Shown piece by piece: positions 53,238 to 56,854 of a stretch of DNA of 57,362 nt. Made by a program: the position numbers and the translations under genes. The notes beneath the pieces were generated by a model. The model had not been told where the DNA came from. It saw only the letters and a program-made list of their open reading frames with translations, and ran no database searches. This DNA is from Candidatus Competibacteraceae bacterium (GTDB lineage Bacteria > Pseudomonadota > Gammaproteobacteria > Competibacterales > Competibacteraceae), in assembly GCA_007695245.1 (NCBI GenBank), contig REEE01000188.1, positions 1 to 57,362 of the forward strand. Reading direction: 5' to 3'. How positions within the stretch are numbered: the first letter of the stretch is position 1; every line of letters starts with the position of its first letter.

Positions 53238-54344
53238 TCACGCGGTCGCGCCCAGCGCCAGCGCCCGTTCCCGGCGAGCGATGCGTTCGGCGGCGATGGC
53301 TTCTGGATCGTAACCCGCGGTGAATTCCGGCCAGCCGGCGGCATGGTTGCCAATCAGATCGACCAGCGCTTCGATGTGGGCTGGAGCCTCGTTCAAGGCC
53401 GGCAGGTAACGGTACCGGGCACCGCCGGCGTCCAGAAAGACCTCGCGGTTTTCAAGCGCGATTTCCTCCAGGGTTTCCAGGCAGTCGGCGGCGAAGCCAG
53501 GGCAGACCACATCCACGCTTCGCACCCCGGCGCGCGCCCAGTCGGCCAACAAGACGCTGGTGTAGGGTTTTAGCCATTCGGCGCGGCCGAAACGGGACTG
53601 AAACGCCACCGCCCACCGGTCGGCGGGCAGGCCCAGGCGCTCGGCGACCAATCGGGCGGTTTTGTGACACTCACAATGATAGGGATCGCCGGCCAGCAGG
53701 TTACGCTCGGGCAGACCGTGGAAGGAAAAGAGCAGCCGCTCGCCGGGGTGGTCGGCGCGGGCCGCGTGGATGCTGGCCGCCAGCGCGTCCAGGTAGCCGG
53801 GATCGTCGTGATAGTGGGTGATCAGCCGCAGTTCCGGCAACCAGCGCCAGCGTCGCAGCTCGGCGGCGACCGCGTCGAAGGTCGAGGCGGTCGTGGTGGC
53901 CGAGTATTGCGGGTAGAGCGGCAAAACCAGCAGGCGGCGGACGCCGGCGGCCCGCAGTTCGGCGAGGGCGGAAGGAATGGAGGGGTTGCCGTAGCGCATC
54001 CCGACCGCCACCCGCACCGGACCGGGAACGCGCTCCGCCAGGGTCGCCGCCACCGCCGCCGCCTGCCGGCGGCTGATGGCCAGCAGCGGCGAGCCTTCGG
54101 GCGTCCAGATGACTTGGTATTTACGCGCCGACTGGGCGGGCCGAACCCGGAGAATGATCCCGTGCAGGATCAGCCACCACAGCAGGCGGGGGATTTCCAC
54201 CACCCGTGGATCCCAGAGGAATTCGGCCAGATAACGGCGCACCGCGGCGGGCGTGGGCGCGTCCGGGGTACCGAGATTGGTCAGGAGTACGCCGACGCCG
54301 TCGGGTTGGTCGTGGCTGAAAGCCGGGGGAGCGCTGAGTTTCAT
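53238..54344 (-). CDS. hemH: Ferrochelatase HemH
   Basis: A 368-residue ferrochelatase inserting Fe(II) into protoporphyrin IX. The opening GVLLTNLGTPDAPTPAAVRRYLAEFL, the strand GMRYGNPSI, LYPQYSATTT, catalytic His in LLFSFHGLPERN, and a CECHKTA cysteine cluster are characteristic. The C-terminal extension is longer than in Bacillus, as usual in proteobacteria. It is the last of the core genes before the accessory tail. Confidence 0.97.
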   Translation of the reverse strand: MKLSAPPAFSHDQPDGVGVLLTNLGTPDAPTPAAVRRYLAEFLWDPRVVEIPRLLWWLILHGIILRVRPAQSARKYQVIWTPEGSPLLAISRRQAAAVAATLAERVPGPVRVAVGMRYGNPSIPSALAELRAAGVRRLLVLPLYPQYSATTTASTFDAVAAELRRWRWLPELRLITHYHDDPGYLDALAASIHAARADHPGERLLFSFHGLPERNLLAGDPYHCECHKTARLVAERLGLPADRWAVAFQSRFGRAEWLKPYTSVLLADWARAGVRSVDVVCPGFAADCLETLEEIALENREVFLDAGGARYRYLPALNEAPAHIEALVDLIGNHAAGWPEFTAGYDPEAIAAERIARRERALALGATA

Positions 54345-54426: not shown

Positions 54427-55605
54427 TCAAGACTCGTTAGGCACTTTCGCGCCAGGTGGATGATCGGGATTCGGTTCGTCGGCATCGCGAATCAGCGTCA
54501 GGTTGCGGGGATTGGCGAGTTCGTAGCGCTGGCCCACGGGAAAAAGATCGCCATCCAGGCTGATCGGAATCCGGTCGCGGAAAGCTTGAATCACCGTATC
54601 GAACATCGATTGTTCGAATTTGACGCTGACACGGCGCGAGCGGTTGTCGAGTAGCAATTGCAGGGTAGCGCGGCCGTCGAACTGCTCGGGTTCGCGATCC
54701 AGGCGGATGACCCAGCCGGTCAGCGCACAATCCAGGCGCGGTTCGTTGCGCCGAAACTCGCGGGCGGCTTCTTCCAGCAAGCGGCCCGTTTCCCGGCTGA
54801 AGAAACGCCGAAGATTGGGGCGACCGGCTGGCCGGACCCGCGCCCAACCAAGTTCGAGCCGGATGCCGTGGCATTGCTGCGCCAACCGCGCCACGGCTTC
54901 GCAGAGGTTGGCGCTGATTCCCTGGGACACTCGGGTTTCAAAGGCGGCGAAGTCGTCGCTGGCGGCGGCGTCGTTCGCGGCCTGTTCCAGAGCATCCAGC
55001 GCCTCGGCCAGCCGATAGGTGACTTGGCGGGCGAAGGGTTCATCCTCCAGCAGGGATTGCTGGGTATGTCTACGCAGGATCGGAGCCACGGGCGAGAGCA
55101 GGGTGATGACGTAGCTGCCGACTTCGGACGGGCCGAGCCGGACCGCTTCCAGATACTGCACGGCTTCAGTCACTTTTCCGGCGTGATAGAACGGCCGGGG
55201 CTGGACCGCCGCGCAAGCCGCTGCCAGCAGCAGGTTTTCGGCTTCCTGATGCAGCAGAACGCCCTCCTGAAGCGCAATCGTGCCGTCGGCGGCGTGGGGA
55301 GCCGCCACGCGCAGCACGTCGGCGCCGGCGGCGAGCAAGTCGCGATAGATCAGCAGTTCGGAGCGGTCCTCGACTTGCGCCAGGGTGCGCAACGCTTCGG
55401 CCATGCGCTCGGGGTAATCGGCCACGTCTTCCCGGCTCGGCAGCAGAATTTCCCAGGTCCGGTGGGCGGCGTCCTGTTGGGTGTGGACGGTCGCCTTGTT
55501 GCCGATCCGGCCGGCTTCAGTCCACTGCTGGCCGGCCAGGTAGGCGCGGACATCCAGGTGGGAGAGGTGCCGGAAGAGCGCCGGATCGCGGATTTGCACG
55601 TTCAT
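54427..55605 (-). CDS. Unrecognised 392-aa protein coupled to DUF4365 gene
   Basis: I do not recognise a family. The protein is soluble and mixed alpha/beta, with a helix-rich centre (EGVLLHQEAENLLLAAACAAV, then ALDALEQAANDAAASDDFAAF) and a C-terminal beta-rich part (ATLQLLLDNRSRRVSVKFEQ). No Walker, HNH or zinc motif is evident. It follows the DUF4365 gene with a four-base ATGA overlap (55602-55605), so both are made together. With a nuclease-like upstream partner in an accessory neighbourhood, it could be a regulator, an immunity partner or a sensor of a defence module. Function unknown. Confidence 0.6.
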   Translation of the reverse strand: MNVQIRDPALFRHLSHLDVRAYLAGQQWTEAGRIGNKATVHTQQDAAHRTWEILLPSREDVADYPERMAEALRTLAQVEDRSELLIYRDLLAAGADVLRVAAPHAADGTIALQEGVLLHQEAENLLLAAACAAVQPRPFYHAGKVTEAVQYLEAVRLGPSEVGSYVITLLSPVAPILRRHTQQSLLEDEPFARQVTYRLAEALDALEQAANDAAASDDFAAFETRVSQGISANLCEAVARLAQQCHGIRLELGWARVRPAGRPNLRRFFSRETGRLLEEAAREFRRNEPRLDCALTGWVIRLDREPEQFDGRATLQLLLDNRSRRVSVKFEQSMFDTVIQAFRDRIPISLDGDLFPVGQRYELANPRNLTLIRDADEPNPDHPPGAKVPNES

Positions 55606-56084
55606 AACGCTTCCCCTCGTTCCGTTCGCGTCATCAGGGTGTGGATCGCTTCACTGTCGAATCGCTGCTGGCGCGGCAGGTGGACGGTCACGGTGGTGGT
55701 GTTTTCGGTATCGGATTGGCCCGCCAGCGACAGCCAGTAACCGCAGTGGCGCAGGCAAAGTTGGTCTTCGGAATGATGGAGCCAGTCCTCCGGCTGTTCG
55801 GGCATCAGGACGACGATCAACAGGCGGGGAACGATGACCTCGGCCCGCAGATCGTTGTAGTTTTTGACAGGCAGCGGGAAAGCCAAGTGGTGTTCCTGAA
55901 GCAGTTCGCGCGAACTGGCCTTGGCCTGAAATTCGATGCGGGGGCGCCGCCCGGCCTGCCCGATCAACATGCCGTCCACGCTGTCGTCATCCACCACTGG
56001 TTCGCAAACTTGGTAACCGGCGCGAGCCGCAACGGCGCTGATGTACGCCAGCGAGAAACGGGCTTTGCGTTGGTTGAGTTCCAT
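55602..56084 (-). CDS. DUF4365-like nuclease-fold protein
   Basis: A 160-residue protein. The segment FSLAYISAVAARAGYQVCEPVVDDDSVDGMLIG followed by IEFQAKAS has the DUF4365 pattern: Asp37 and Glu51-x-Gln53-x-Lys55, which fits a PD-(D/E)xK nuclease-like core. DUF4365 proteins occur in accessory and defence loci; activity is not established. It is upstream of, and overlaps, the 392-aa gene (ATGA at 55602). The pair stands between hemH and the toxin-antitoxin/IscB remnants. Confidence 0.65.
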   Translation of the reverse strand: MELNQRKARFSLAYISAVAARAGYQVCEPVVDDDSVDGMLIGQAGRRPRIEFQAKASSRELLQEHHLAFPLPVKNYNDLRAEVIVPRLLIVVLMPEQPEDWLHHSEDQLCLRHCGYWLSLAGQSDTENTTTVTVHLPRQQRFDSEAIHTLMTRTERGEAL

Positions 56085-56153: not shown

Positions 56154-56291
56154 CTAATCCCGCCCTTCGATCACGCGCACGACCTCCAGCTTTTGCAGGT
56201 CAGCGAGCATTTCCTGAATGGGATGGCTGAGAGTGAAGATAACGGTGGCGGCTCCAGGTCTGCTGCTGAAATAATCGGTTTTCGATATAAT
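56154..56291 (-). pseudogene. Remnant reading frame (about 45 codons) of unknown gene
   Basis: A short frame with no standard start (the first sense codons after an in-frame stop read PIISKTDYF) ends VVRVIEGRD and includes FTLSHPIQEMLADLQKLE. It looks like the C-terminus of a small antitoxin-like protein, but I cannot name a family. It overlaps the scrambled end of the HigA remnant in another frame. Confidence 0.25.
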
Positions 56292-56601
56292 GGGTTGGCC
56301 GGTTCAACGCCCGCTTGCGCGAAAGCACTTCATACACCCGTTGTGGCGGACCGATATACGGTTTCAAATCAGCCACCGTCAGGCCCTGCTGCTCCATTCT
56401 AAATTTGATCGCCTCAATCGGGTCGGGCGGCAGTACCGGATGATGTTGCGCCTCATACACTTGCACCAGCGTGGCCAGCACATCCAGGCGGTCGCCTTCA
56501 GGGGTGCCAGGCATCGGATCATCAACCATCAGCAAGGCGATCTCTTCAAGCGCCGCCTCGTAATCAGCCTCGGTACGGATTGGACGAATATCCATTGTCA
56601 T
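56200..56601 (-). pseudogene. HigA-family antitoxin, C-terminus altered
   Basis: Residues 1-100 match HigA antitoxins with an XRE helix-turn-helix at the end (MDIRPIRTEADYEAALEEIA, GTPEGDRLDVLATLVQVYE, IEAIKFRMEQQGLTVADLKP). After SRKRAL, at about 56301, the family continuation (a helix and final DNA-binding part) is replaced by unrelated residues; the junction is the likely breakpoint or a frameshift. No HigB toxin gene is next to it. Its start overlaps the IscB fragment in another frame. Confidence 0.6.
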
Positions 56602-56854
56602 CAGATTTTCCGCGAGAGACCCCCACGGTTTCGGTCTCTCTGGCCAGCGCGATCCCGGTCATTTGACTCCCCGGATCGAGTTTGATCTTGAGCGGCTGTA
56701 AGACGGAATCGCACACTTCACGATCCACCAGTCGAATGGCAAACGGCATCCGCCGATGCACGCGGGCGCGACCTCTCGCCAGTAACTTCCTGGCACGCTT
56801 TTCACTACACGGCATCAGGGTTTTTTTGTGTCGATCCAATACAAAAACAGGCAT
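56564..56854 (-). pseudogene. iscB: IscB (OMEGA RNA-guided nuclease ancestor), 5' fragment
   Basis: The first 76 residues are a clear IscB N-terminus: PLMP-type start (FVLDRHKKTLMPCSEKRARK), an RGRARVHRRMPFAIRLVDR arginine-rich segment (bridge-like RRXRR domain) and the first RuvC motif KLDPGSQMTGIAL with its catalytic Asp. The rest, including the bridge helix, HNH domain and later RuvC motifs, is missing; after ETETVG the frame runs into unrelated sequence and stops. It cannot be an active nuclease. An omega RNA region remains upstream. Confidence 0.8.

What the first reader, a model, noticed from the sequence alone, without database searches (positions are those of the whole stretch)
54427..56084. 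Two-gene unit: DUF4365 nuclease-like protein with an unrecognised 392-aa partner
The two genes overlap by ATGA, so they are made together. One has a PD-(D/E)xK-like motif (Asp37, Glu51, Gln53, Lys55); the other matches nothing I can name. They stand in an accessory tail with toxin-antitoxin and IscB remnants, a setting typical of defence modules. The nuclease motif and coupling are seen; the defence role is inference.
Basis: partly seen in the sequence, partly recalled or inferred. Interest (0 to 1): 0.6.

Follow-up and report, generated by a model that had tools for sequence, protein, structure and literature searches.

The report
Two-gene DREN nuclease defence candidate (PDC-M02)
This is an intact copy of a two-gene unit already listed as a candidate anti-phage system (PDC-M02): a small DNA/RNA-cutting enzyme of the kind used by Argonaute (SPARDA) defence, made together with an adaptor protein that ends in a nucleic-acid-binding fold and whose recognition half is exchanged between bacteria; no test of it was found.

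Summary
Two minus-strand genes overlap by ATGA, both are under purifying selection (dN/dS about 0.10), and the pair recurs in at least eight phyla. It is not unrecognised: PADLOC-DB lists the proteins as candidate system PDC-M02 (A 194 bits, B 436 bits). No held paper names PDC-M02.

New here:
(1) M02A is a stand-alone DREN (DUF4365) nuclease. Its nine best PDB fold matches are all SPARDA DREN-APAZ chains. D37, Q53 and K55 are invariant and match SPARDA's mutated D41/Q60/K62. Glu51 is not conserved.
(2) M02B is modular: an N-terminal domain (1-93), an alpha/beta centre and a C-terminal OB-fold. All 22 intact M02A genes found in an M02A-seeded survey are followed by a gene with the N-domain. 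The rest varies: the centre is missing in cyanobacteria, and in two Chloroflexota it is replaced by the front halves of PDC-S02 (normally ahead of an Mrr nuclease) and PDC-S11.
(3) Neighbours are defence-rich: 240 PADLOC models hit against 12 in controls. Two temperate phages carry the pair.

Most likely M02B recognises foreign nucleic acid and activates M02A through the N-domain, like a split Mrr-type nuclease. Recognition, docking and phage protection are inferred.

The parts
55602..56084 (-). M02A: 160-aa stand-alone DREN/DUF4365 nuclease; catalytic set D37 (55974-55976), Q53 (55926-55928), K55 (55920-55922)
   Evidence: PF14280 69 bits; PDC-M02A 194 bits; AF2 pLDDT 86; nine best Foldseek PDB hits are SPARDA DREN-APAZ chains, best E 3e-5; D37/Q53/K55 invariant; D41/Q60/K62 of NbaSPARDA (PMC12205087)
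54427..55605 (-). M02B: 392-aa adaptor/sensor partner, overlaps M02A by ATGA
   Evidence: PDC-M02B 436 bits; no Pfam/NCBIfam/PDB sequence match; AF2 pLDDT 84.6
55327..55605 (-). M02B N-terminal domain (residues 1-93), the constant module that accompanies every intact M02A; order a-a-b-b-b-a-a; proposed docking domain
   Evidence: present downstream of 22/22 intact M02A; retained in mini, S11-, S02- and M63B-type partners; secondary structure
54745..55323 (-). M02B central alpha/beta region (about residues 95-287), missing in cyanobacterial partners and replaced in two Chloroflexota
54493..54738 (-). M02B C-terminal OB-fold (residues about 290-371, order b-b-b-a-b-b), proposed nucleic-acid-binding module
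   Evidence: nearly all top Foldseek PDB hits are OB domains (probability mostly 0.95-1.00, E about 0.01-0.05); relative L013 weakly hits PF01336 over residues 310-362, E 0.0086
53238..54344 (-). ferrochelatase hemH: core gene downstream of the pair; marks the insertion site, not part of the unit
   Evidence: PF00762 391 bits; in related genomes the gene upstream of hemH is often a divergent 2-hydroxyacid-dehydrogenase-like ORF instead of M02

Best explanation
The pair is a two-subunit, modular anti-invader nuclease. M02A is a single-domain DREN (DUF4365) nuclease, expected to be inactive alone. M02B binds it through its N-terminal domain and recognises foreign or abnormal nucleic acid through its C-terminal OB-fold and central domain. 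Recognition brings M02A copies together on the target, or on M02B oligomers, and switches on Mg-dependent D/Q-x-K cleavage. The division of labour is like a split Mrr-type enzyme: recognition in one polypeptide, cutting in the other. Shown here: the DREN fold and catalytic set, translational coupling, the constant N-domain, exchangeable recognition halves, an OB-type fold in the model, and a defence-rich setting. Inferred: physical docking, the ligand, the activation step, and whether the outcome is local cleavage or cell-suicidal collateral cleavage.
For: M02A model matches SPARDA DREN-APAZ best. D37/Q53/K55 are invariant and match D41/Q60/K62, whose mutation abolishes or impairs SPARDA nuclease activity; isolated DREN is monomeric and inactive and is switched on by tetramerisation (PMC12205087). 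The M02B C-terminus models as an OB-fold. All 22 intact M02A are followed by an N-domain gene. Module exchange: full, centre-less mini (cyanobacteria), N + front half of PDC-S11 (273 bits), N + front half of PDC-S02 (170 bits), N + PDC-M63B-like (51 bits); full-length PDC-S02 proteins carry an Mrr_cat nuclease at exactly the part that the fusion lacks. Defence-rich neighbours, including type I specificity subunits in 5 of 150 neighbours and an AbiJ-type gene overlapping M02A. Carried by Leptospira phage LE1 and at the edge of an M. abscessus prophage. In the M02A-seeded survey the nuclease gene decays first: broken A with intact B at L120, L128, L129 and L132 against intact A with broken B at L127, as expected if A is the harmful part.
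Against: No experiment on any PDC-M02 member was found. The complex was not modelled, so docking is inferred. OB-fold matches have E 0.01-0.05 and rest on the model. OB domains also bind proteins. Only two clear graft fusions were seen, both from Chloroflexota assemblies. The survey took loci with recognisable M02A, so the 22/22 figure applies to this subfamily and not to all DUF4365 proteins.
Confidence: 0.6

Rival explanations
1. Toxin-antitoxin pair: M02A is a toxic nuclease held inactive by M02B; release on infection or plasmid loss kills or stalls the cell.
For: Overlapping two-gene operon; often on plasmids, next to ParA or TA genes; nuclease gene decays before its partner.
Against: M02B is a 392-aa multi-domain protein whose recognition half is exchanged with the front half of an Mrr-type enzyme, which suits a sensor better than an inhibitor; SPARDA DREN alone is already inactive, so no neutraliser is needed; orphan M02B genes persist.
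Confidence: 0.15
2. Type IV-like, modification-dependent restriction only: M02B reads modified bases and M02A cuts just the invading DNA, without collateral damage.
For: PDC-S02 front half (the non-nuclease half of Mrr_cat proteins) grafted onto the N-domain; DUF262 genes and type I RM genes nearby.
Against: The window's own M02B has an OB-fold and no known modified-base reader; nothing tested shows sensitivity to modification.
Confidence: 0.15
3. Housekeeping or mobile-element function (DNA repair, plasmid maintenance) with no role in defence.
For: OB-folds and PD-(D/E)xK nucleases also occur in repair; mini pairs sit next to ParA on cyanobacterial plasmids.
Against: Patchy distribution (8 of 59 relatives, 10 of 398 phylum genomes), different sites in close relatives, defence-rich neighbourhood.
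Confidence: 0.1

Closest known systems
PDC-M02 (PADLOC-DB 2.0.0 phage defence candidate, proteins M02A/M02B)
   Same: Both proteins match full length (194 and 436 bits), adjacent and in the same operon.
   Different: Nothing in membership; the catalogue entry as searched gives no fold, active site or architecture and no held paper names it.
SPARDA (short Argonaute + DREN-APAZ)
   Same: M02A has the same DREN/DUF4365 fold and catalytic D, Q, K in the same strands.
   Different: DREN is a separate protein here; no Argonaute or APAZ: M02B matches no Argonaute/APAZ model among its best PADLOC hits and ends in an OB-fold.
PDC-S02 (front domain + Mrr_cat restriction-type nuclease)
   Same: Its front half is found grafted onto the M02B N-domain in L006, so one logic of recognition plus nuclease.
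   Different: In M02 the nuclease is a different protein (DREN) encoded in trans.
DUF6575 proteins (one DUF6575 system gave phage defence in E. coli, PMC9519451)
   Same: Foldseek BFVD match of the M02B model to a DUF6575-named viral protein, E 1.8e-7.
   Different: No Pfam DUF6575 match in any of 26 M02B sequences; relation not established.

Membership tests
PDC-M02 (PADLOC candidate system) | M02A protein present | tested here: met
   PDLC04297 194 bits over residues 1-159
PDC-M02 (PADLOC candidate system) | M02B protein present and adjacent | tested here: met
   PDLC04298 436 bits over residues 1-375; ATGA overlap
PDC-M02 (PADLOC candidate system) | Protects cells against phage | not testable with these tools
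   No published test found
DREN / DUF4365 nuclease | PF14280 profile match | tested here: met
   69 bits, cut-off 24.3
DREN / DUF4365 nuclease | PD-(D/E)xK-type fold as in SPARDA DREN | tested here: met
   nine best Foldseek PDB hits all SPARDA DREN-APAZ chains, E 3e-5 to 1.6e-3, probability 1.00
DREN / DUF4365 nuclease | Catalytic D (beta2), Q-x-K (beta3) | tested here: met
   D37 in strand 36-41, Q53 and K55 in strand 49-58, invariant in 21 sequences
SPARDA | Short Argonaute (MID-PIWI) and APAZ domain | tested here: not met
   best PADLOC matches of M02B are all PDC-M02B models; model shows an OB-fold, no Argonaute among the top 50 fold hits
OB-fold protein (M02B C-terminus) | b-b-b-a-b-b barrel matching known OB domains | tested here: met
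   model order at residues 290-371; top 50 PDB hits are nearly all OB-fold proteins, E 0.01-0.05
HicA / dsRBD-like (M02B N-domain) | Profile similarity to HicA | tested here: inconclusive
   hhalign probability 12.8%, 24 columns, though higher than controls below 1%
DUF6575 | PF20215 profile match | tested here: not met
   none of 26 M02B sequences match; only a structural lead

The most novel reading that the evidence does not exclude
PDC-M02 is a plug-in defence platform: one constant module (DREN nuclease plus the M02B N-domain) is combined with interchangeable recognition domains (OB-fold, PDC-S02 front domain, PDC-S11 front domain, M63B-like), so that DREN nucleases are switched on by protein sensors of foreign nucleic acid as well as by Argonaute guides.
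Probability: 0.4. Interest if true: 0.7.

Novelty: new member of a known kind. Interest (0 to 1): 0.48.

Why it matters
In the papers found here, DREN nucleases are characterised as Argonaute-controlled effectors with collateral nuclease activity useful for diagnostics. A widespread family in which the same nuclease is paired with an exchangeable, Argonaute-free sensor would show a second way to trigger it, give testable sensor domains, and turn an anonymous PADLOC entry into a mechanism that one mutant (D37A) can test.

Tried and rejected
Glu51 as a catalytic residue: rejected, variable in the family. APAZ/Argonaute partner (SPARDA membership): no such match for M02B. HicA/dsRBD identity of the N-domain: topology suggestive, profile comparison inconclusive. 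DUF6575 identity: only a structural lead. Viral-contig search with the M02B alignment failed for lack of conserved stretches, and the single-sequence search found nothing. Phage search with the window's M02B found nothing, but a cyanobacterial M02A query found phage copies. A stand-alone 101-aa Nodularia phage protein resembling part of M02B could not be located by tblastn. PADLOC counts are of redundant models and gene calls were simple ORF picks, so the enrichment is indicative, not a test statistic.

Full report
OBSERVATION. They lie upstream of hemH (53238-54344, ferrochelatase, 391 bits), close to the contig end, next to an IscB N-terminal fragment (RRXRR) and a HigA-like ORF that has no significant Pfam match (HigA is my reading of its sequence). 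The pair is intact: against the nearest relative (L001, Ca. Competibacter phosphatis; 92% and 90% identical) dN/dS is about 0.10 for A and 0.09 for B. The ATGA overlap is conserved in 20 of 24 relatives checked.

ALREADY CATALOGUED. The 160-aa protein is DUF4365. Neither NCBIfam nor the PDB, searched with the single sequences, helps. PADLOC-DB does: the two proteins are PDC-M02A (194 bits) and PDC-M02B (436 bits), a two-gene 'phage defence candidate'. The literature library holds no paper naming PDC-M02 and ten naming DUF4365, the defence ones concerning Argonaute systems.

M02A IS A FREE-STANDING DREN NUCLEASE. In 21 homologues Asp37, Gln53 and Lys55 are invariant; Glu51 is not. A model built from 11 sequences has pLDDT 86. 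Its nine best PDB matches are all SPARDA DREN-APAZ chains (best E 3.1e-5, TMq 0.61, probability 1.00), followed mainly by EcoRV at weaker scores. In NbaSPARDA the catalytic residues are D41 (beta2), Q60 and K62 (beta3); D41A and Q60A abolish activity and K62A impairs it; DREN alone is monomeric and inactive and is switched on by tetramerisation (PMC12205087). In the M02A model D37 lies in the second strand and Q53/K55 in the third, the same set.

M02B IS MODULAR. The model (pLDDT 84.6) has an N-terminal a-a-b-b-b-a-a domain (1-93), an alpha/beta centre and a C-terminal b-b-b-a-b-b barrel (290-371). The top PDB hits are OB-folds (tRNA-synthetase anticodon domains, SSB, RPA, Stn1; probability mostly 0.95-1.00 but E only 0.01-0.05). 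A relative weakly hits the OB Pfam family over the same part. Homologues show which parts matter. In Nostoc and other cyanobacteria the partner is about 180 aa: N-domain joined directly to the OB-fold. In Chloroflexota L005 the N-domain is joined to positions 4-183 of PDC-S11 (273 bits) and in L006 to positions 3-159 of PDC-S02 (170 bits). Full-length PDC-S02 proteins carry Mrr_cat, and PDC-S11 proteins DUF4268, in precisely the half that the fusions lack. A cyanobacterial partner (L124) continues as PDC-M63B-like (51 bits). In a survey seeded with M02A, all 22 intact M02A frames are followed by a gene with the N-domain (one partner is truncated). The constant pair is therefore nuclease plus N-domain; the recognition half is exchanged. 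I infer that the N-domain docks M02A and the rest senses.

DEFENCE SETTING. Relatives occur in Pseudomonadota, Cyanobacteriota, Chloroflexota, Spirochaetota, Bacillota, Bdellovibrionota, Desulfobacterota (L007, by organism name) and Actinomycetota (phage host). Among 150 neighbouring ORFs, 240 PADLOC models are hit at E <= 1e-10, with type I specificity subunits in five; 150 control ORFs, mostly from the same genomes, hit 12 models. Models are redundant, so this is indicative. In L056 an AbiJ/Abi_C gene overlaps M02A by four bases, and in L058 a type I specificity-subunit gene does so. An Entomospira plasmid carries the pair beside DUF262, HicA and Abi genes. Temperate phages carry it too: Leptospira LE1 and genes 1-2 at the edge of an M. 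abscessus prophage. The family is patchy (8/59 relatives, 10/398 phylum genomes). In many related genomes the gene upstream of hemH is a divergent 2-hydroxyacid-dehydrogenase-like ORF (my reading of its sequence) rather than M02; this includes G024, which holds the nearest copy of the pair on another contig. The pair therefore seems to move between sites.

DECAY PATTERN. M02B often outlives M02A: an IS6-type transposase ORF replaces most of M02A in a Pigmentibacter plasmid, an M02A remnant stands before intact M02B in L065 and none was found for L059 or L064, and the M02A-seeded survey has broken A with intact B at four loci against one of the reverse. This fits a nuclease that is costly once unregulated.

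MECHANISM. I think the pair works as a split, sensor-driven nuclease: M02B recognises foreign nucleic acid and gathers M02A, activating it. Shown: fold, active site, coupling, constant N-domain, exchange of recognition halves, defence setting. Inferred: docking, ligand, outcome. Rivals are a toxin-antitoxin pair, a purely modification-dependent restriction enzyme, and a maintenance function.

NOVELTY. The window's copy is an ordinary member of a catalogued but, as far as the held library shows, unstudied candidate. What seems new is the identification of M02A as an Argonaute-free DREN nuclease and the exchangeable architecture of M02B.

Noticed in passing
L005:6480-7475 and L006:2370-3194: M02B N-domain fused to the front halves of PDC-S11 and PDC-S02; the fusions lack exactly the DUF4268 and Mrr_cat halves of those families.
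   Followed up: yes
L002, L003, L004, L031, L070, L118-L123: Cyanobacterial mini-partner of about 180 aa: N-domain joined directly to the OB-fold, often on plasmids near ParA and integrase genes.
   Followed up: partly
BFVD A0A482MK90, Nodularia phage vB_NspS-kac65v162: A stand-alone 101-aa phage protein resembles part of M02B (rmsd 1.7 over 83 columns, E 3.5e-4); could be a decoy or inhibitor of the system, but the record was not found by tblastn.
   Followed up: partly
L141:398-2160 (M. abscessus prophage prophi102-2) and L140:5989-7667 (Leptospira phage LE1): M02 pairs carried by temperate phages; in prophi102-2 they are genes 1-2 at the prophage edge, in the same stretch as WXG/polymorphic-toxin genes.
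   Followed up: partly
L056:5127-6485 and L058:9631-10998: Genes overlapping M02A by four bases: an AbiJ_NTD3/Abi_C protein and a type I specificity subunit, so M02 can form larger defence operons.
   Followed up: partly
L054:7947-8447: C-terminal fragment of an M02B very like the window's, joined to a PIN-toxin-like remnant in a related genome: decayed copy.
   Followed up: no
window 56200-56601 and 56564-56854: HigA-like antitoxin ORF whose C-terminal part looks out of frame (reading of the sequence; no significant Pfam match), and an IscB N-terminal fragment (RRXRR, 84 bits): decayed accessory tail.
   Followed up: partly
Competibacteraceae genomes: HicA-type toxin genes are very abundant in this family (up to 25 matches in one genome).
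   Followed up: no
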